Assembly (NCBI RefSeq): GCF_021531255.1
Contig: NZ_JAFBIO010000001.1
Location: 62,001 to 126,000, forward strand
Source of the DNA: Allofournierella massiliensis
GTDB taxonomy: Bacteria > Bacillota > Clostridia > Oscillospirales > Ruminococcaceae
Length of the DNA stretch: 64,000 nucleotides
Reading direction: 5' to 3'
A model generated the notes under the pieces. It did not search any database. It had not been told where the DNA came from and saw only the letters and a program-made list of their open reading frames with translations. Of this stretch, positions 873 through 38,700 are shown in pieces. The position numbers and the translations under genes were made by a program. The number at the start of each line of letters is the position of its first letter. Positions within the stretch are counted from its first letter, which is position 1.

Positions 873-2030
873 TTGCCAGAAGGAAGAAAAATCAATTCTG
901 AAATTGGAAGAACAGCCATAGAGGAAAAAGTAAAAATGCATCTTTGGGCTGCCGCTGGTGGCAGGTGCGAATTGTGCAACAAGCCACTGTTTGTAGACGA
1001 CTCTTTTGGGGTGGAAGCAAACTACGGTCAGCTTGCGCACATTCACGCAGTAAGCCAAGGTGGGCCCCGTCACAAAGCGGATCTTTCAAATGAAGATAAG
1101 AATTCTTTTAACAACCTAATGTTACTGTGTCCTGAGCATCATCATATGATTGATACGATGCCGGAATCTTTTGTTGAGGGTTATCTGCTGCTAAAGAAGA
1201 AACGACACGAGGAACGAATTCGTAGATTAACAGAAATAACTGACACACAGACCTGCAGAATCGTGACATATTTTTCGAATATCGATAACTGGGAGTTGTT
1301 CAGTGATAGCAAATTACTGAAAGAAGCGGCGGTAGGAAGCAATATGTTACCAGGTTCCGAACCGGTTATTGAGCTTCACAGAGATTCTAAGTTGACATAT
1401 CAGTCAAAACGAGAATCTTTTGAACGAAAAGCTGAGGATCTACAAGAGCAGTGTCAAAAGTGGTTTGATGCAATCATTAGGGGAAACGATGCGGTTGCAG
1501 TGTTTGCACTAGCTCCGCAACCGCTATTGTTTGTCCTCGGAACATTCTTGAATGATCAGTTTAATGTTAAGGTTTTTCAATGTCATCGAACAGGACATAA
1601 GTGGCGATGGCCAGATGACAATACTACCGTTGGCTTTGAATTCTTTAAGAGCAGGTCGTCGAATAATGGAGCGGTTGCATTGGTAGTTGACTTAAGCGCT
1701 TCCGTTACCGACGACAGAGTTGCGAATGTATTAGGAAACGACATTAATATCTATCATCTTACAATTTCTTCTCCGAATAGGACTTTTGTGACCAACGAAA
1801 AAATACAGGATGATTTTGTGGCTACATTCAGAAGTGCACTGGAACACATTAAAAATGAGAATTCTAGTGCAACAGAAATACATCTATTTCAGGTGATGCC
1901 TAACTCGTTAGCCGTGCGTGCAGGAATGGATTACATGCCTAAAGCTGACCTGCCCTTGGTATTGTACGAGCAAGCATCTGCTGCAGAAGGCTTTTTTGCA
2001 GTATTAAAAATTGGAGGAACTTGTGTTTAG
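873..2030 (+). CDS. cap5: CBASS effector, HNH endonuclease-SAVED protein (Cap5 type)
   Basis: This is the DNA-degrading effector of a CBASS anti-phage system. In the known family the C-terminal SAVED domain binds a cyclic oligonucleotide and activates the N-terminal HNH nuclease. The HNH domain spans about residues 25-100, with a CxxC pair (C32, C35), the AHIHAVSQGG core (H56, H58), N81 and the CPEHHH motif (C86, H89, H90). Residues from about 190 to the end have SAVED-like character, including the FEFFKSR and LVVDLSAS strands. Length (385 aa) fits the family. The start is TTG at 873, eight bases behind a GAGAGGAG ribosome site. The gene begins 18 bases after brxC and overlaps the CD-NTase start by 8 bases. 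The HNH motif is certain; SAVED is assigned from overall pattern and context. Confidence 0.88.
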   Translation: MPEGRKINSEIGRTAIEEKVKMHLWAAAGGRCELCNKPLFVDDSFGVEANYGQLAHIHAVSQGGPRHKADLSNEDKNSFNNLMLLCPEHHHMIDTMPESFVEGYLLLKKKRHEERIRRLTEITDTQTCRIVTYFSNIDNWELFSDSKLLKEAAVGSNMLPGSEPVIELHRDSKLTYQSKRESFERKAEDLQEQCQKWFDAIIRGNDAVAVFALAPQPLLFVLGTFLNDQFNVKVFQCHRTGHKWRWPDDNTTVGFEFFKSRSSNNGAVALVVDLSASVTDDRVANVLGNDINIYHLTISSPNRTFVTNEKIQDDFVATFRSALEHIKNENSSATEIHLFQVMPNSLAVRAGMDYMPKADLPLVLYEQASAAEGFFAVLKIGGTCV

Positions 2031-3168
2031 TAGAGATAAATATAATAAGATTCTTCGCGAGTCAGCCCAGGCGATTGATATCAGCGATGAGATGTTCGCC
2101 AAGGCCGTAGAAGAATACGAAAGCTTGGGAAAGTGGATTGATGAAAATACTCCATTATATGAAATCGCCATTTTCCCGCAGGGATCGTTTGCGTTGGGCA
2201 CTGTTGTTCGCCCAGTCAGCAATGAGGAAGATTATGACCTTGATCTGGTTTGCGAATTCAAACAGAGATACGGGCTTACTGCCAAACAATTAAAGTGTGA
2301 TGTTGTTAAGCCCCTTTTAGTTCGCTACAAGAAAGCATCTCGTGAAATTGAAGAAAAAAGACGCTGCTGGCATGTTGAGTATGACGATATCCCCAATTTC
2401 CACATGGATGTTATTCCTGCATACAAGTATTATTCAGGAATTCAAATTACCGACCATAATGAAGAATTGAATTCATATGACTACATGGGAAGTAATCCTG
2501 CCGGGTATGTCGAATGGTTTTTTGGGCGATGTGCAAGACAGCATGCCCGGTTATATGAAAACTATGTCCGCGATCACAAACTTGTCGTTGCTCAGGCTGA
2601 TATTGAAAAAGTTAAGCGCAGAAAAGTCAAGACACCGTTACAGCGGACTGTTCAGATTTTGAAGCGACACAGGGATATTATGTTCGCAGATAGGGATTCA
2701 ACTTTGAAGCCAATCTCAATCATAATCACTACACTTGCAGGCAGGTTATATGAGGAAGAGGATACTGTTTTAGAGGCTCTTGAATCCATTCTTGGAAAAA
2801 CTCTAAAATTTATCATCGACAACAAAAAAGATGGTCAGTATTACATTGAAAATCCTAGTTATCCAGGGGAAAACTTCGCAGATAAATGGAATACTCATCC
2901 AGAACGAGTAAATGCATTTTTAGAATGGCTATCAGCAGCAAAGCGAGATTTACTTGCGGGTAATTTGATTACAGAAAGTCGTGGAGATGTTGCTCTTCGT
3001 ATGCAGAATTGTTTTGGTGCTCCGATTGCGGTAAGAGTATTTAATCAAATAGCACAGGAAGAATCGTCTGGAATTAAAAGTGGCACGATAAAGATGGATA
3101 CCCGGAGTGGAAATCTGTCTGATTCAGGAAGCATTAGCGTTCCTGCTAATCATCATCATGGGGCGTAA
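2023..3168 (+). CDS. CBASS cGAS/DncV-like nucleotidyltransferase (CD-NTase)
   Basis: This enzyme senses infection and makes the cyclic nucleotide that activates the SAVED effector. The polymerase-beta fold signature is present: a GS motif (G54-S55 in PQGSFALGT), the metal-binding pair D72/D74 in DYDLDLV, and the third acid D129 in HMDVIPAY. The best start is GTG at 2023, five bases behind a GGAGG that lies inside the end of the effector gene. A TTG at 2011 is possible but would overlap that ribosome site. The protein is then 381 residues. It ends Gly-Ala after a flexible His-rich tail, which suits C-terminal conjugation as known for type II CBASS cyclases. The clade and product cannot be fixed by eye. 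The downstream E2-like gene overlaps it by 11 bases. Confidence 0.9.
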   Translation: MFSRDKYNKILRESAQAIDISDEMFAKAVEEYESLGKWIDENTPLYEIAIFPQGSFALGTVVRPVSNEEDYDLDLVCEFKQRYGLTAKQLKCDVVKPLLVRYKKASREIEEKRRCWHVEYDDIPNFHMDVIPAYKYYSGIQITDHNEELNSYDYMGSNPAGYVEWFFGRCARQHARLYENYVRDHKLVVAQADIEKVKRRKVKTPLQRTVQILKRHRDIMFADRDSTLKPISIIITTLAGRLYEEEDTVLEALESILGKTLKFIIDNKKDGQYYIENPSYPGENFADKWNTHPERVNAFLEWLSAAKRDLLAGNLITESRGDVALRMQNCFGAPIAVRVFNQIAQEESSGIKSGTIKMDTRSGNLSDSGSISVPANHHHGA

Positions 3169-27871: not shown

Positions 27872-27942
27872 GAGAGGCCACCGACAAACACAGGGAAACC
27901 ATACCCAATGGTAACCCGTGCTTGCCGGTGGTCTCTTTTTTC
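27872..27942 (+). terminator. Large hairpin with T-run
   Basis: GAGAGGCCACCG (27872-27883) pairs with CGGTGGTCTC (27926-27935) and is followed by TTTTTTCTTTT. A smaller inverted repeat (ACCAT/ATGGT) lies in the loop. It likely ends the LexA-like/zinc-ribbon transcript. The stretch 27747-28170 otherwise holds no gene. Confidence 0.65.
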
Positions 27943-28016
27943 TTTTCCACCGGTCAGGCAAATCAAATCCCAAGAATAACAAAATATCGAAAGCCTGACA
28001 TGCATTAAGGGCCGAG

Positions 28017-28139
28017 GATACATATACTGCTCACTCCCGAAAATTTGATTATTTTCATTTTTCGGGAATGCAGTATCGGTACCCTTTCTTTAGTGCACCC
28101 TTTTGCAGGCTGCCGGCTCCGGTCCCGAGTATATGTATC
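28017..28139 (+). promoter_or_regulatory. Switch-like leader with alternative pairings before the Xre gene
   Basis: GATACATATAC (28017-28027) is a perfect complement of GTATATGTATC (28129-28139), closing a domain of about 120 bases. The overlapping ATACTGC (28024-28030) can instead pair with GCAGTAT (28070-28076), which encloses a stable hairpin TCCCGAAAAT/ATTTTTCGGGA (28035-28044 with 28057-28067). The two pairings exclude each other in part, as in attenuators. It ends 31 bases before the Xre start codon. It may be an RNA switch or a DNA-level control region. Confidence 0.45.
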
Positions 28140-28170
28140 TTCTGCTCCGCACAGGCGGAAAGGAAAAGAA

Positions 28171-28458
28171 ATGTATTACGATCCCGTTGAATTTGGAAAG
28201 AGACTCCGCGAACTGAGACTGAGCCTGGGACTGACGCAGGAAGAACTTGCAGAAAAACTGAACATTAGCCTGAACCATATGAGTTTTCTGGAAAGAGGTT
28301 TGCGATCCTGTTCTATTGACTTATTTGTTGAGCTCTCTTTCTTCTTTGATGTGACACTGGATTATCTGATCCTGGGACCGAATCCCCGGCATGCCGACAA
28401 CAAAGACCAGCTCCTCGATGTGATCAGCCAGCTGTCCAGAATAGCGAAGAACATGTAA
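28171..28458 (+). CDS. Xre-family helix-turn-helix regulator
   Basis: A 95-residue protein. Residues 6-65 form a classic Xre domain (FGKRLRELRLSLGLTQEELAEKL, then SLNHMSFLERG), with a short helical tail. The start is ATG at 28171 behind GGAAAGGAAAAG; a longer frame from 28045 runs through the structured leader and is unlikely. Such small regulators control excision and transfer genes in integrative elements. Its operator is not obvious. Confidence 0.85.
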   Translation: MYYDPVEFGKRLRELRLSLGLTQEELAEKLNISLNHMSFLERGLRSCSIDLFVELSFFFDVTLDYLILGPNPRHADNKDQLLDVISQLSRIAKNM

Positions 28459-28532: not shown

Positions 28533-28559
28533 CATGTACCGATCAAGCGGTGCATGAAC
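28533..28559 (+). other. Hairpin ahead of the candidate structured RNA
   Basis: TGCATGTACCG pairs with CGGTGCATGA around an ATCAAG-type loop with one mismatch. It has no T-run, so it is more likely a structured leader or a protein-binding site than a terminator. Confidence 0.4.
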
Positions 28560-28570
28560 TTTGAAAACCG

Positions 28571-28800
28571 AATATACATTCTTCAGTCACGAACCCGTGA
28601 TGAGCAGCAACCTCCGTTGTAAATGCGATGAACTCCCACTGAGGGAACGAGCGGTACACAGCGGTAAGTGCCGGACAGCTTCCGGCATAGCGTAAACATT
28701 ACGGCATAATGAGACTTCCGCCTGCGGGCGGCTCGGTGAGAACCACGGAGGGGTGAGATTCCCATGGACCTGGTAAGCTGCCGGACGACTGAATGTATTC
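28571..28800 (+). ncRNA. Candidate structured RNA (or hairpin-rich origin region)
   Basis: The interval between the Xre and MazF genes has no credible ORF but shows nested pairing. The outer stem is GAATATACATTC...CAGTC (near 28571-28588) with GACTGAATGTATTC (28787-28800). Inside it are GCAGC/GCTGC and CCTCCGT/ACGGAGG (about 28611-28617 with 28745-28751). Within these sit several local hairpins: TCCC/GGGA, TGCCGGA/TCCGGCA (near 28669-28688), CGTAA/TTACG and CCGCC/GGCGG. This order of stems is unlikely by chance. I do not recognise the family. A DNA origin (sso/oriT) would also give hairpins. No folding energy was computed. Confidence 0.45.
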
Positions 28801-28932
28801 CCTGTTTTTCGGGGGTGTCGAGGACAAATACGAAAAGATCATATAACGAAACTTACATCCGGGGAGACTCGGAGTTTGAAACGTAGGGCTGGTAATCGTA
28901 CCAGCCGTTTACATACAAAGGAGGAATGCATT

Positions 28933-29331
28933 ATGAAACATAATCGAGATGTATTAAAACCGGGATGGTGCTTCAGACGCGGCGATATCTATATGGCAAA
29001 CCTGAATCCTTTCACCGGTTCTGAACAGGGCGGTACAAGACCGGTCCTGGTTCTGCAGAACAATGACGGCAACTTCTACTGCCCGACCCTGATCGTAGCA
29101 CCGATGACCACGCAGCTGAAAAAGCTGAACCAGCCGACGCATTTCCTGATCAAGCACAACAGAGCGTTGGCAGCTCCCTCCATGGTGGAGTTCGAACAGA
29201 TCAAGACCATCGATAAAAGCAGGGTGCTGAGCTACCTTGGTAAGCTCACCAGAGAACAGCTGGCGCAGGTGGATGATTACCTGAAGGTCAGCCTGGGAAT
29301 GTATATTCCGGAAACCGTTGAGGCTCCGTAA
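28933..29331 (+). CDS. MazF/PemK-family mRNA-cleaving toxin
   Basis: A 132-residue protein with the MazF fold pattern: RRGDIYMANLNPFTGSEQGGTRPVLVLQN at residues 15-43, then VAPMTT and a VEFEQIKTIDKSRV segment. MazF toxins are ribosome-independent RNases normally held by a MazE antitoxin made just upstream. Here no antitoxin-like ORF precedes it; the space holds the candidate RNA at 28571-28800. The start is ATG at 28933 behind AAAGGAGGA; the longer frame from 28876 is not needed. It may stabilise the element or have been taken over for another role. Confidence 0.86.
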   Translation: MKHNRDVLKPGWCFRRGDIYMANLNPFTGSEQGGTRPVLVLQNNDGNFYCPTLIVAPMTTQLKKLNQPTHFLIKHNRALAAPSMVEFEQIKTIDKSRVLSYLGKLTREQLAQVDDYLKVSLGMYIPETVEAP

Positions 29332-29395: not shown

Positions 29396-29614
29396 ATGGA
29401 AGCATGTGAAGTATTTGAGATGGATGCGAATTCACCGGATGCACTTCCGGAGAAGCGTACCTATACAGTTGAAGATATTCAGGTGATCCTGGGTATTTCC
29501 AGAGGAACAGCATATAAGCTCCTTGAGAAGAAGGAATTCCGCTGGTTCAAGATCGGCAGCACCTATCGCATCTCCAAGAAGAGCTTTGATGACTGGCTTG
29601 ATAATATGATGTGA
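29396..29614 (+). CDS. Excisionase-type helix-turn-helix protein
   Basis: A 72-residue protein of the MerR-like HTH_17/excisionase family: YTVEDIQVILGISRGTAYKLL followed by FRWFKIGSTYRISKKSFDDWL. It probably bends DNA at the attachment site and directs the integrase to excise. The ATG at 29396 lies eight bases behind AGGAGG; the ATG at 29390 is too close to it. It is encoded upstream of a larger HTH-repeat protein and the integrase. Confidence 0.82.
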   Translation: MEACEVFEMDANSPDALPEKRTYTVEDIQVILGISRGTAYKLLEKKEFRWFKIGSTYRISKKSFDDWLDNMM

Positions 29615-29724: not shown

Positions 29725-30594
29725 ATGGGTGAGAATGACAAAACGACTATGTCCGTCCCTGAGATGAGGCGGATGTTGGGACTCGGTAAGACAGAAGCTT
29801 ACTGGTTAGTACATAGAGGTTTCTTTGATACGATCCTTGTTGAAGGCAAGATGAGGATCGTCATTGAAAGCTTTGAGAAATGGTATGCGAACCAGATTAA
29901 ATGGGAAAAGGTTGAGGGTCCTCCACCGGGTGAGGAACTGAATGCCTATTCGTACTCCATTCCGCAGATTGCAGAGTTGCTCGGTGTAGATGGCTCAATC
30001 GCCTATGACATCGTAAAGCGCTGCCACATCGAAACCTTCACGGTCGATACCTGGAAGCGTGTCCGCAAGGACGTATTTGAAGCCTGGTATCAGAGTCAGT
30101 CCAAATACAGGACTCCTGAAGACAGAGAAAGAGATGCTGAGCGCGAAGAAGCAACGATGACTATGCCGGAGATGGCAAGACTTCTGCTCATACCACGTAA
30201 AGATGTATACGGAATTCTTTCCAGCCCCAAGAATGTGGGCGTATTTGAATATGAGATCATTGCAGACCGTAAGCGTGTTACAAAGGAAAGCTTTGAACGC
30301 TGGTATGCTGGTCAGAAAAAGTATCGCAAATTATGCGACCGTTCCGAAGCAGAACAGGCCAGGATCGAGGAGCTTCGTAAGGAAGCTGAAAAGCCCCGCT
30401 TGAAAGTCCCGGATAACAAGCCGGCCTATGACCTTCAGGAGACAGCAATCCTGCTCGATATTACATATAACGAAGTACGTGAGCTGATCCGAAACGGTGA
30501 CCTGGAGGCAAAGAAATACGGAAACAAGATGTTTGTCATCAGAGATGATATCCAGTGGTTTCTGTTTCAGCAGAAGCTGAACCATGAAGATTAA
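29725..30594 (+). CDS. Protein with four tandem excisionase-like HTH units
   Basis: A 289-residue protein made of four similar blocks: residues about 7-55 (MSVPEMRRMLGLGKTEAYWLV ... SFEKWYANQ), 74-125 (YSIPQIAELLGVDGSIAYDIV ... VFEAWYQSQ), 143-195 (MTMPEMARLLLIPRKDVYGIL ... SFERWYAGQ) and 232-285 (YDLQETAILLDITYNEVRELI ... DIQWFLFQQ). Each has a MerR/HTH_17 helix pair and a Trp-containing end helix. It starts behind AAGGAGGATTAAC and ends 17 bases before the integrase gene. Such a protein could bind several half-sites at once when organising the excision complex; this role is inferred. Confidence 0.75.
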   Translation: MGENDKTTMSVPEMRRMLGLGKTEAYWLVHRGFFDTILVEGKMRIVIESFEKWYANQIKWEKVEGPPPGEELNAYSYSIPQIAELLGVDGSIAYDIVKRCHIETFTVDTWKRVRKDVFEAWYQSQSKYRTPEDRERDAEREEATMTMPEMARLLLIPRKDVYGILSSPKNVGVFEYEIIADRKRVTKESFERWYAGQKKYRKLCDRSEAEQARIEELRKEAEKPRLKVPDNKPAYDLQETAILLDITYNEVRELIRNGDLEAKKYGNKMFVIRDDIQWFLFQQKLNHED

Positions 30595-30611: not shown

Positions 30612-32018
30612 ATGGCTTCAATTGTTGAAAGAAAAAATCGTTACTGCGTTGTCTATCAGTACGATGCCGAAGACGGCAAAAGAAAGCAGAAATGGGAAAC
30701 CTATAAGACCATGGCTGAAGCCAAGCGTCGCAAAGCAGAGATCGAATATAAGGAAGAACTCGGAACGCTGGTGATTCCCAACTGCAAGACACTGGAGGAA
30801 CTCCTGAGGGAATACGTCACGCTTTATGGCAAGACGACTTGGGCCATCTCCACTTATGGAGGCTGCACAGCCTTGATTGAGCATTACATCATTCCGATCA
30901 TTGGCTCCATGAAACTGAATGAGATCACTTCCCGTGTTCTTGAAAAGTATTATATGTCGCTGCTCAAGACGCCTGCGGTCGATAAGATCACGAAGAAGCG
31001 AGGTTCCAAGAATGTAGATTACGTGACTCCGGCAACCGTGAAAAAGATACATAACATCCTGCGAAGTTGTTTTCATCAGGCTGTGAAATGGGATCTGATG
31101 GAAAAGAACCCGGCGGTATATGCTACGGTTCCGAAGGCTGAAGCCAAGAAACGTGAAATCTGGGATGCTCCCACTCTCTTCCATGCCCTTGAGGTGTGCG
31201 AGGATGAGCGACTGAAACTTGCCATAAATCTTGCGTTTGCCTGTTCCCTTCGTATGGGAGAGCTGCTTGGACTGACCTGGGACTGCGTAGATATCACACC
31301 TGAAAGCATTGTCGCAGGCAAAGCATATGTCTATGTTAATAAGGAACTTCAGCGAGTGGACAAAAGCCATATGTCGGTTCTGGAAAAGAAGGATGTGATC
31401 ACGACCTTCCCGGAACTCAGGGCCAATAACAAGACGGTCCTTGTCCTGAAAAAGCCTAAGACAGCAACCAGCACCCGTAAGGTTTTCCTGCCGAAGACCG
31501 TTGCAGAGATGCTGGTTGACTGGAAGCGTGAGCAGGAATTTACCAAGGCAGCGCTTGGCAAGGAATATCAGGACTTCAACCTGGTCATGGCCAATGGACT
31601 TGGCATGCCGACGGAGGATTCCAGAATCAACAGCATGTTCAAGGAACTGATTACGAAGCATGATCTGCCATATGTTGTGTTCCACAGCCTGCGTCATTCC
31701 AGTATCACTTACAAGCTGAAGCTGAACGGCGGCGATATCAAAGCGGTTCAGGGCGACTCCGGTCATGCACAGGCGACCATGGTAACCGACCAGTATTCTC
31801 ACATCCTGGACGAAGACCGCAAGGCCAATGCAGAGCTTTTCGAGAATGCATTCTACAGTGGCAAGGTAATGGAAACGGAAGAACCTGAGCCTGCTGAGAC
31901 TGAACCGGCTGCGGCGGCCGCAGTACCTGCCGGAGTGGATCCGGAGCTTCTGATGAAGCTTCTTACCAATCCGGAGATGGCATCGCTTCTTAAAACGCTG
32001 GCACAGACAATAAAATAA
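30612..32018 (+). CDS. int: Tyrosine recombinase, element integrase
   Basis: A 468-residue integrase. An AP2-like N-terminal arm-binding domain and a core-binding domain (SAM-like, about 60-165) precede the catalytic domain. Catalytic residues visible: R214 (SLRMGELLG), H358 and R361 (HSLRHSS), H385 (GHAQATM) and the nucleophile Y395 (DQYSHI). A low-complexity Glu/Pro/Ala stretch near 420-440 separates a short C-terminal helix. It lies next to the tRNA-derived attachment site at 32419-32464, as usual for integrases of tRNA-targeting elements. The start is ATG at 30612 behind AAGGAGGA. Confidence 0.95.
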   Translation: MASIVERKNRYCVVYQYDAEDGKRKQKWETYKTMAEAKRRKAEIEYKEELGTLVIPNCKTLEELLREYVTLYGKTTWAISTYGGCTALIEHYIIPIIGSMKLNEITSRVLEKYYMSLLKTPAVDKITKKRGSKNVDYVTPATVKKIHNILRSCFHQAVKWDLMEKNPAVYATVPKAEAKKREIWDAPTLFHALEVCEDERLKLAINLAFACSLRMGELLGLTWDCVDITPESIVAGKAYVYVNKELQRVDKSHMSVLEKKDVITTFPELRANNKTVLVLKKPKTATSTRKVFLPKTVAEMLVDWKREQEFTKAALGKEYQDFNLVMANGLGMPTEDSRINSMFKELITKHDLPYVVFHSLRHSSITYKLKLNGGDIKAVQGDSGHAQATMVTDQYSHILDEDRKANAELFENAFYSGKVMETEEPEPAETEPAAAAAVPAGVDPELLMKLLTNPEMASLLKTLAQTIK

Positions 32019-32418: not shown

Positions 32419-32464
32419 TCTCCTAAGCGGAAGGCCGCTGGTTCGAATCCAGTCAGGGACGCCA
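32419..32464 (+). other. Right attachment site: 3' half of tRNA-Arg(CCT)
   Basis: The sequence from the anticodon loop CTCCTAA (anticodon CCT at 32422-32424) through the T arm GCTGG-TTCGAAT-CCAGT and the 3' acceptor strand CAGGGAC to G-CCA fits the 3' half of a tRNA-Arg. The upstream bases cannot form the D arm or the 5' acceptor strand GTCCCTG, so this is not a working tRNA. It is the fragment carried by a mobile element that integrates into tRNA-Arg and restores the gene at its other end. That end, with the full tRNA, should lie left of base 1. Confidence 0.8.
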
Positions 32465-33066: not shown

Positions 33067-33086
33067 AGACTAACGATATTTTACAT

Positions 33087-33123
33087 AGCCCCGTGGTGAC
33101 GAAAATCACTGCGGGGCTTTTGT
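33087..33123 (+). terminator. Terminator after the HTH-like gene
   Basis: AGCCCCG-TGGTGA pairs with TCACTG-CGGGGCT around a CGAAAA loop and is followed by TTTTGT. Confidence 0.8.
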
Positions 33124-33172
33124 CGTCTCCGGACTTCCCCGGCGGCGGATCAAAACTATGGAGGATATCGTG

Positions 33173-33475
33173 ATGAGAAAAAAAGTGAGACGCAAAACCA
33201 TTCTGATCGATGGGATCAGATACTACGATGACAAGCCGGATACCTGCCGCAAGTGCTTCTTCTGGAAAAACCGCAAGGCCGGCTGTGTCCTTGGTACGCA
33301 GAACTGCTACTACCTGGCTGAGGCAGTAAAGACCGAGCAGGAAAAGAAATGTGAGGGCTGCTGTTACGCCAAAGGCCATCCCTGTGTCAGCGCTGTCTGC
33401 TACAAGGAACTGGACGCATGGCTCAGAGCAATCCGGGCTAACCGCGCAAAGGAAGAAGGTGCGGCAAATGAGTAA
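33173..33475 (+). CDS. Cysteine-rich protein of mobile-element type
   Basis: A 100-residue basic protein with cysteines in the order CRKC, a lone C, C-x-x-C-C (CEGCC) and two later C, enough for one or two metal sites. The start is ATG at 33173 behind GGAGGATATCGTG; an ATG at 33158 is also possible. It overlaps the next small Cys-rich gene by eight bases. The function is unknown. Confidence 0.6.
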   Translation: MRKKVRRKTILIDGIRYYDDKPDTCRKCFFWKNRKAGCVLGTQNCYYLAEAVKTEQEKKCEGCCYAKGHPCVSAVCYKELDAWLRAIRANRAKEEGAANE

Positions 33476-33692
33476 GAAGGATGATGTCTTCCGCAGATAT
33501 GAGAAGCTTGCGAAGGCTGCAAAGAAAGAAAATCCCGGGAATGCATCGGACCACAAGCCCGGAAGCTGCGCTCACTGCCTCTACTATCGCCCGGATTTCA
33601 AGTATCGCCGGTGCCAGTTCACCAGGTGTCCCTACGGTAAGGATAAGGATGTGTTTCGCAAAAAGCCTCTGAAGCGCGATAAATTCTCCTGA
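33468..33692 (+). CDS. Small cysteine-rich basic protein
   Basis: A 74-residue protein with a charged N-terminal helix and a C-terminal CAHCLYYRPDFKYRRCQFTRCPYG cluster of four cysteines, a likely zinc knuckle. The ATG at 33468 overlaps the upstream gene, so the two are probably translated together. No function can be assigned. Confidence 0.6.
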   Translation: MSKKDDVFRRYEKLAKAAKKENPGNASDHKPGSCAHCLYYRPDFKYRRCQFTRCPYGKDKDVFRKKPLKRDKFS

Positions 33693-33711
33693 AAGCAGGT
33701 GGTGACTATGA

Positions 33712-33972
33712 GTGTTTGATTATTTCTATGGACCTCAGGCAGAACAGTTTGCCTTCTACCGGGTTCCCAAGGTGCTTTTTACGAATGACCGGTTCAAATA
33801 TCTGTCGGCTGAGGCGAAAACTATGCTGGACTACCTCATGCCCCGCCTTGCCAGAGAAGCAGGAGCCACCGAAGCCCTCAAAGCCGCCGACCCGATGAAA
33901 TGGGTAGGTTTGATGAACAACTGCAAGGCGAGAGCCGAGGAAATCGTAATGCATGAGCTAATCTATGTTTAA
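33712..33972 (+). pseudogene. Chimera of RepA_N replication initiator start and TnpV-like end
   Basis: The first about 42 residues (MFDYFYGPQAEQFAFYRVP, FKYLSAEAK) match the start of RepA_N-type replication initiators in Clostridia elements. From about residue 43 on, the sequence (LMPRLAREAG, DPMKWVGLMNNCKARAEEI, ending HELIYV) looks like the C-terminus of TnpV-type transposon proteins. An in-frame deletion near 33838 seems to have joined two unrelated genes. The product, 86 residues, should not work as an initiator. The family comparisons are from memory. Confidence 0.6.
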
Positions 33973-38499: not shown

Positions 38500-38574
38500 A
38501 AGCAACAGAAGATTTGAATTTGTCGATTAAAAAGTTGATCGTGCCATATGTGGCTTGATTATAAAAGCAAAGAT

Positions 38575-38700
38575 AAAAACGCAATGTACACCTAAAAGTG
38601 TGCTAGAGCTGGTAGGTAGCCCAGCCGTCCTATTTTAAATAGGGTAAGTAACCTGCCCCTCCGGGTTGTCCATTCTTTGTGAAACAAATATTCAGGAGGG
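38575..38700 (+). promoter_or_regulatory. Probable yjdF riboswitch
   Basis: The leader of a yjdF-type gene contains ordered pairings: TACAC/GTGTG, a GGTAGGTAGCCC...AACCTGCCCC segment and the hairpin CCTATTTTAAATAGGG. The yjdF RNA motif is known just upstream of yjdF genes in Bacillota and binds azaaromatic compounds. The assignment rests on position and general look; no covariance model was run. Confidence 0.62.

What the first reader, a model, noticed from the sequence alone, without database searches (positions are those of the whole stretch)
28571..28800. Candidate structured RNA between Xre and MazF
About 230 bases without an ORF show at least three nested long-range stems and four local hairpins, closed by GAATATACATTC.../GACTGAATGTATTC. 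It is directly before an antitoxin-less MazF, so it might control the toxin, act as an RNA antitoxin-like element, or be a replication/transfer origin.
Basis: partly seen in the sequence, partly recalled or inferred. Interest (0 to 1): 0.68.

Follow-up and report, generated by a model that had tools for sequence, protein, structure and literature searches.

The report
Conjugative element's canT-type antiterminator RNA
The flagged stretch is a conserved folded RNA of about 270 bases that most likely lets RNA polymerase run through stop signals once a conjugative element has cut itself out of the chromosome; it is a relative of the tested Tn916 antiterminator canT, and it gives a likely job to two orphan Rfam RNA motifs (pemK and dinG).

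Summary
The structured RNA is real and longer than reported (about window 28533-28829). Part of it (28706-28767) is the orphan Rfam motif "pemK RNA" (RF02913, 70.5 bits). Around 90 copies show that the conserved unit is much larger: a hairpin, a boxA-like sequence, closing helix P1, helices P2, P3, P3b, P4, the pemK part and a last hairpin, nearly all with strong covariation. In the window's genome the boxA-like sequence matches only here and in the 16S-23S rRNA spacer. The decisive link is Tn916 canT, an experimentally shown cis-acting processive antiterminator RNA (PMC11658703): it matches RF02913 (55.0 bits), has the same boxA, P1 and P2, and its inactivating ATA-to-TGC mutation falls exactly on the first three pemK bases. 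The window RNA occupies the canT position of a ~72-kb ICE: regulator, RNA, MazF, Xis, Int, attR, with a terminator at the opposite end before RepA/ParAB/T4SS genes. MazF follows the RNA in only 29 of 92 copies, so an RNA antitoxin is not supported; oriT is unlikely. Best reading: a canT-class antiterminator coupling transfer-gene expression to excision. Unproven here: transcription, activity and NusB/S10 recruitment.

The parts
28533..28556 (+). P0 hairpin directly before the boxA-like sequence (boxB-like position)
   Evidence: Folds at -13.9 kcal/mol, z -3.49; the upstream 45 nt of 40 homologues fold at mean -12.3 against -7.3 shuffled; in L031 GTACC/GGTAC replaces GTACCG/CGGTGC
28559..28574 (+). 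boxA-like sequence CTTTGAAAACCGAATA
   Evidence: Pattern has 2 hits in the whole own genome: here and in the 16S-23S spacer; YTTGAMAA upstream of 72 of 90 pemK copies, 11 of 170 control segments
28575..28588 (+). P1 5' strand (closing helix)
   Evidence: Swap test z -17.6; 11 of 12 pairs with double changes
28595..28598 (+). P2 5' strand (CCGT)
   Evidence: Swap test z -12.7
28614..28620 (+). P3 5' strand (CCGTTGT)
   Evidence: Swap test z -10.0
28634..28646 (+). P3b hairpin (TCCC/GGGA)
   Evidence: Swap test z -8.6
28658..28664 (+). P3 3' strand (ACAGCGG)
   Evidence: As for P3 5' strand
28669..28687 (+). P4 hairpin (TGCCGGA/TTCCGGCA)
   Evidence: Swap test z -15.9; 8 of 8 pairs with double changes
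28701..28704 (+). P2 3' strand (ACGG)
   Evidence: As for P2 5' strand
28706..28767 (+). Rfam pemK RNA RF02913; begins with the near-invariant AUAAUGAUACUUC (here AUAAUGAGACUUC)
   Evidence: 70.5 bits, gathering 34.8; the Tn916 canT(S3) mutation lies on the equivalent of its first AUA
28769..28784 (+). P9 hairpin after the pemK part
   Evidence: Swap test z -13.3; 6 of 6 pairs with double changes
28787..28797 (+). P1 3' strand
   Evidence: As for P1 5' strand
28799..28829 (+). Conserved 3' tail TCCC..GGGGGTGTCGAGGACAAATA
   Evidence: Recurs in many copies; absent as such from Tn916
28171..28458 (+). Xre-family regulator gene before the RNA
   Evidence: HTH_3 1.6e-11
28933..29331 (+). MazF/PemK-family gene, first gene after the RNA
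   Evidence: PF02452 1.8e-30
29396..29614 (+). Excisionase-like HTH_17 gene
   Evidence: Pfam HTH_17
29725..30594 (+). HTH_17 protein
   Evidence: Pfam
30612..32018 (+). Tyrosine integrase
   Evidence: Phage_integrase 4.4e-18
32420..32463 (+). attR: copy of the 3' end of tRNA-Arg(CCU); attL is at the intact tRNA gene G000:C11:22667-22743
   Evidence: blastn; ARAGORN
33081..33124 (+). 44-bp terminator-like sequence, identical to the one at the ICE's left end (G000:C11:23508-23551), here at the left end of a second, adjacent element
   Evidence: pattern

Best explanation
The feature is a canT-class processive antiterminator RNA of an integrative and conjugative element (ICE). It sits near the right end, between regulator genes and the MazF-Xis-Int module. 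While the ICE is integrated, a terminator just inside its left end shields RepA, ParA/B, VirD4, VirB4 and relaxase genes from host transcription. After excision and circularisation, a transcript that starts upstream of the RNA runs through RNA-MazF-Xis-Int and across the joined ends. The nascent RNA folds (boxA-like 5' part, P1-P4 body, pemK core) and modifies the elongating polymerase, probably together with host Nus factors recruited by the boxA-like sequence, so that it ignores the left-end terminator and transcribes the transfer genes. Shown here: structure, homology to canT, ICE anatomy, a terminator-like hairpin. Shown by others for Tn916: cis, orientation-specific, processive antitermination. 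Inferred: activity of this copy and the role of NusB/S10.
For: (1) The Tn916 canT region (pCF10 copy, L162) matches RF02913 at 55.0 bits and carries TTCTTTGAAAACTGAATA, the same P1 (AGTAATCGAATA/TGTTCGATTGCT) and P2 (CGATAAGA/TCTTATCG) at the same places. (2) canT(S3), an ATA-to-TGC change starting 283 nt after the orf8 stop that abolishes antitermination, is L162:3923-3921, exactly the first three bases of the pemK motif; the inactivating 162-bp deletion covers the whole pemK part (PMC11658703). (3) Same location: Tn916-type sigma/orf8 or Xre genes upstream in 45 of 92 copies; recombinase, Xis, MazF or ParA/B-type genes downstream in 76 of 92, 135 of 138 of those downstream genes on the RNA's strand. 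(4) Strong covariation of helices outside the Rfam model used to find the copies. (5) boxA-like sequence shared with the rRNA spacer of the own genome. (6) The window's ICE has the matching left-end terminator-like hairpin (-24.8 kcal/mol) before RepA_N/ParA/ParB/T4SS genes.
Against: No transcript or reporter data for this copy, and no clear promoter was found directly upstream of it. 18 of 90 pemK copies lack the strict boxA-like sequence, some lack a canonical P1, and the L076 copies lack most of the 5' body, so not every part can be essential. The pCF10 element is a Tn916-type copy, not the very Tn916 of the paper, although the S3 position reads ATA as expected. A shorter 400-bp canT fragment was insensitive to S3 in the paper, so the role of the motif depends on context.
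Confidence: 0.88

Rival explanations
1. A cis-regulatory leader of the MazF/PemK toxin (the Rfam annotation), controlling only that gene's translation or termination.
For: Rfam files RF02913 as cis-regulatory 'pemK RNA'; MazF is among the next three genes in 29 of 92 copies and directly next in the window.
Against: Most copies have other genes downstream; in the window's nearest relatives two genes separate RNA and MazF; Tn916 canT has no MazF between it and xis and works on heterologous terminators and lacZ (PMC11658703).
Confidence: 0.05
2. An RNA antitoxin (type III-like) that binds or is cut by the adjacent MazF.
For: No antitoxin gene is seen next to MazF; a structured RNA precedes it.
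Against: RNA copies without MazF nearby are the majority; no tandem repeat units in the window's RNA; canT function needs no other Tn916 gene (PMC11658703).
Confidence: 0.02
3. A DNA element (oriT or other transfer/replication origin) whose hairpins act in the DNA.
For: It lies in an ICE and has inverted repeats.
Against: The relaxase gene is ~40 kb away; the boxA-like sequence and the near-invariant single-stranded AUAAUGAUACUUC point to RNA; canT is orientation-specific and affects transcription, not excision (PMC11658703).
Confidence: 0.02
4. A structured leader that mainly protects the transcript from Rho through its boxA-like sequence, or stabilises it, with no processive effect on intrinsic terminators.
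For: boxA-like sequence; some copies retain only boxA plus the pemK core.
Against: canT read through several intrinsic terminators in series (PMC11658703).
Confidence: 0.05

Closest known systems
canT of Tn916 (Wirachman & Grossman 2024, PMC11658703)
   Same: RF02913 match, boxA-like sequence, P1 and P2 at the same places, AUAAUGAUAC motif hit by the S3 mutation, position between regulator genes and xis/int, terminator at the opposite end
   Different: The window RNA has MazF between it and xis, a Xre gene instead of orf7/orf8 directly upstream, no long insert in the first pemK stem, and a conserved 3' tail
Rfam pemK RNA (RF02913)
   Same: The 3' part of the window RNA is a full match
   Different: Rfam models 61 positions only and names it after MazF/PemK; the conserved RNA is about 270 nt and not MazF-specific
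Rfam dinG RNA (RF03082)
   Same: The RF03082 match L160 has the same boxA-like sequence, GCC..GAGCGAGCGA and AUUAAUGAUACUUCC
   Different: Different hairpins after the core; the window scores below its threshold (23.3 of 46.9 bits)
rrn boxA antitermination element
   Same: CCTTGAAAACTGAATA of the own 16S-23S spacer against CTTTGAAAACCGAATA here
   Different: The large structured body with the pemK core is not part of the rrn element
EAR and HK022 put RNAs; pLS20 conAn
   Same: RNA-based processive antitermination (PMC11658703, PMC8955417)
   Different: [quoted passage not shown] conAn also needs a protein; EAR and put were not compared by sequence here

Membership tests
canT-class antiterminator | Homologous to the Tn916 canT RNA | tested here: met
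   Both match RF02913 above threshold and share boxA-like sequence, P1 and P2
canT-class antiterminator | Contains the bases whose change inactivates canT | tested here: met
   canT(S3) AUA = first three pemK positions; window 28706-28708 is AUA
canT-class antiterminator | Located between element regulators and xis/int, terminator at the other end | tested here: met
canT-class antiterminator | Read-through of terminators in cis, processive | not testable with these tools
   Needs a reporter assay
Rfam pemK RNA RF02913 | Score above gathering threshold | tested here: met
   70.5 against 34.8
Rfam dinG RNA RF03082 | Score above gathering threshold | tested here: not met
   23.3 against 46.9
rrn-type boxA element | Near-identical boxA sequence in the same genome's rRNA operon | tested here: met
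rrn-type boxA element | Binding of NusB/S10 | not testable with these tools
   No binding data
Type III (RNA antitoxin) toxin-antitoxin | RNA paired with its toxin gene | tested here: not met
   MazF near only 29 of 92 copies
oriT | Close to the relaxase gene | tested here: not met
   Relaxase ~40 kb away in the integrated ICE
oriT | Nick site | not testable with these tools
   No mapping data

The most novel reading that the evidence does not exclude
The orphan Rfam motifs pemK and dinG are fragments of one large, widespread class of mobile-element antiterminator RNAs that has captured the host's rRNA boxA and so couples ICE gene expression to the NusB/S10 antitermination machinery; Tn916 canT is its first tested member.
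Probability: 0.6. Interest if true: 0.78.

Novelty: new member of a known kind. Interest (0 to 1): 0.64.

Why it matters
It gives a probable function to an orphan Rfam RNA that is named after a toxin and found in 100 of 298 sampled genomes of the window's family (up to 9 copies each), and to a related motif, dinG. For canT, whose authors found structure prediction 'complicated', it supplies a covariation-supported structure, an explanation of the S3 mutation, and a host-factor hypothesis (boxA, NusB/S10). It shows how many ICEs, including this one with BREX, CBASS and Wadjet defence genes, may tie transfer-gene expression to excision. In the held literature I found no paper linking pemK RNA to canT.

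Tried and rejected
MazF-specific leader, RNA antitoxin and oriT: rejected or made unlikely. Other Rfam families: only sub-threshold dinG and a chance snoRNA match. pLS20 conAn2 as a relative: no match. The first P4 window in the swap test was misplaced (z +2.5); with alignment-based windows it gives z -15.9. MAFFT registers of P1 and P2 differ between subfamilies, so P2, P3 and P3b were tested by strand swapping rather than by column counts. The left-end terminator pattern is element-specific (2 of 298 genomes), so it could not be used to find other elements. The 2017 discovery paper of the Rfam motif and the conAn paper were not held.

Full report
OBSERVATION. The + strand of 28571-28800 folds at -80.7 kcal/mol, z -2.58, so single-sequence folding alone is suggestive only. 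Rfam identifies 28706-28767 as pemK RNA, RF02913, 70.5 bits against a gathering score of 34.8.

HOMOLOGUES. RF02913 occurs in 100 of 298 sampled genomes of the window's family, up to 9 copies per genome, and in 21 of 299 genomes sampled across the phylum. I aligned about 90 copies with 200 nt upstream. Conservation reaches from CCTTGAAAACTGAATA, about 150 nt or more before the pemK part, to a hairpin and GGGGTGTCGAGGACAAATA after it. Because copies were found almost only by the pemK part, everything upstream is independent evidence.

STRUCTURE. In copy after copy a closing helix P1 starts 17-22 nt after the start of the boxA-like sequence and ends 13-20 nt after the pemK part, with completely different sequences, for example AGTGCTGCGGAT/GTCCGCAGCATT, AGGTTATCAGGT/GCCTGATAACTT and AACTTTACAGGT/GCCTGTAAAGTT. 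On 40 distinct sequences (39 in the swap tests), swapping 3' strands among sequences destroys pairing: z -17.6 (P1), -12.7 (P2), -10.0 (P3), -8.6 (P3b), -15.9 (P4), while deliberately mismatched strand pairs give z 0.0-0.1; last hairpin -13.3, main pemK stem -10.0, first pemK stem only -2.6. Column counts on the plain MAFFT alignment agree: 32 of 35 pairs with double changes, covariation score 0.630 against 0.229 in shuffles and at most 0.179 for slid partners. Relatedness inflates shuffle-based numbers, but the slid control keeps it.

BOXA. The pattern CYTTGAMAAYHGMATA hits the 2.5-Mb own genome twice: in this RNA and in the 16S-23S spacer before 23S; the reversed control pattern hits 0 times. 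In genome G013 five of six hits lie about 350 nt after 16S 3' ends. YTTGAMAA occurs upstream of 72 of 90 pemK copies against 11 of 170 control segments, and the 45 nt before it fold better than shuffled sequence. That boxA binds NusB and S10 in rrn and lambda antitermination is established for E. coli (PMC12691694); its action here is inference.

LINK TO canT. Wirachman and Grossman (PMC11658703) showed that a 452-bp region between orf8 and xis of Tn916 is a cis-acting, orientation-specific, processive antiterminator, most likely RNA. I took the Tn916-type element of pCF10 (L162). Its orf8-xis region (460 bp) matches RF02913 at 55.0 bits and has the boxA-like sequence at nt 125, P1 at 142 and 397, and P2 at 159 and 273 after the orf8 stop. 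The published S3 mutation (ATA to TGC at nt 283) coincides with pemK positions 1-3, and the base triplet there is indeed ATA; the 162-bp deletion removes nt 229-390, the entire pemK part (nt 283-383). The coincidence of Rfam motif, mutation and position is what makes the functional transfer strong.

ELEMENT ANATOMY. The window lies in a ~72-kb ICE: attL at tRNA-Arg(CCU), G000:C11:22667-22743, attR at window 32420-32463. From left: a 44-bp terminator-like sequence (C11:23508-23551, -24.8 kcal/mol), RepA_N, ParA, ParB, VirD4, a TraG/VirB4-type ATPase, NlpC/P60, topoisomerase, relaxase, Wadjet, BREX with CBASS genes inside it, regulators, the RNA, MazF, Xis, Int. This is the Tn916 plan: antiterminator at one end, terminator and transfer genes at the other, brought into line by circularisation. 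A second element adjoins at attR; its left end keeps the 44-bp terminator unchanged although the flanks are only about 68% identical, which suggests selection on it.

NOT A MazF ELEMENT. Of 92 copies, downstream genes include serine recombinase in 32, MazF in 29, tyrosine integrase in 17, ParA in 11. In L031, L032, L035 and others the order is RNA, ParB-like gene, DUF6551 gene, MazF, so the window's MazF is next to the RNA only because those two genes are missing.

RELATED CLASSES. dinG RNA (RF03082) at L160 has the same boxA-like sequence and core, so dinG is probably a branch of the same class; this rests on one clear example and two looser ones. pLS20 shows neither feature.

LIMITS. No expression data; activity of this copy, its promoter and the boxA factors are untested. 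The statement that the literature has not made the pemK-canT link covers only the held library.

Noticed in passing
L076 (G287:C14:35291-36724, - strand): Four tandem copies, about 430-500 nt apart, of a short version of this RNA (boxA-like sequence, short hairpin, pemK core) before a ParB-like gene; two copies lie 768 nt apart in G235:C28. Why an element would stack antiterminators is open.
   Followed up: partly
L160, L161, L159: dinG RNA (RF03082) copies share boxA-like sequence and/or core with this RNA, so two Rfam families may be one class.
   Followed up: partly
window 28016-28141: Long inverted repeat (GGATACATATACTG..GAGTATATGTATC; z -5.05) before the xre gene, in a stretch 95% identical in L031; no Rfam match.
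   Followed up: partly
window 27872-27937: Very stable intrinsic-terminator-like hairpin (-38.4 kcal/mol, z -4.71) followed by a T-rich tail, between the regulator operon and xre.
   Followed up: partly
window 28800-28933 against L031:3264-4990: Two genes (ParB-like and DUF6551) present between RNA and MazF in the nearest relatives are missing in the window.
   Followed up: yes
window 873-3168: CBASS-type cyclase and SAVED-HNH effector genes lie inside a BREX locus (BrxC end at 75-854, two PglX, PglZ, BrxL); Wadjet genes lie upstream on the same ICE.
   Followed up: partly
window 33081-33972: Left end of a second ICE adjoining attR, with an identical 44-bp terminator and a short RepA_N-like reading frame.
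   Followed up: partly
window 38563-38689: azaaromatic (yjdF) riboswitch, RF01764, 72.6 bits.
   Followed up: no
G139:C5:550678 and G144:C7:50941: CCTTGAAAACTGAATA directly before GGAGGACACTGGATGGC in two genomes, without the pemK part: maybe a truncated copy or another use of the boxA-like sequence.
   Followed up: no
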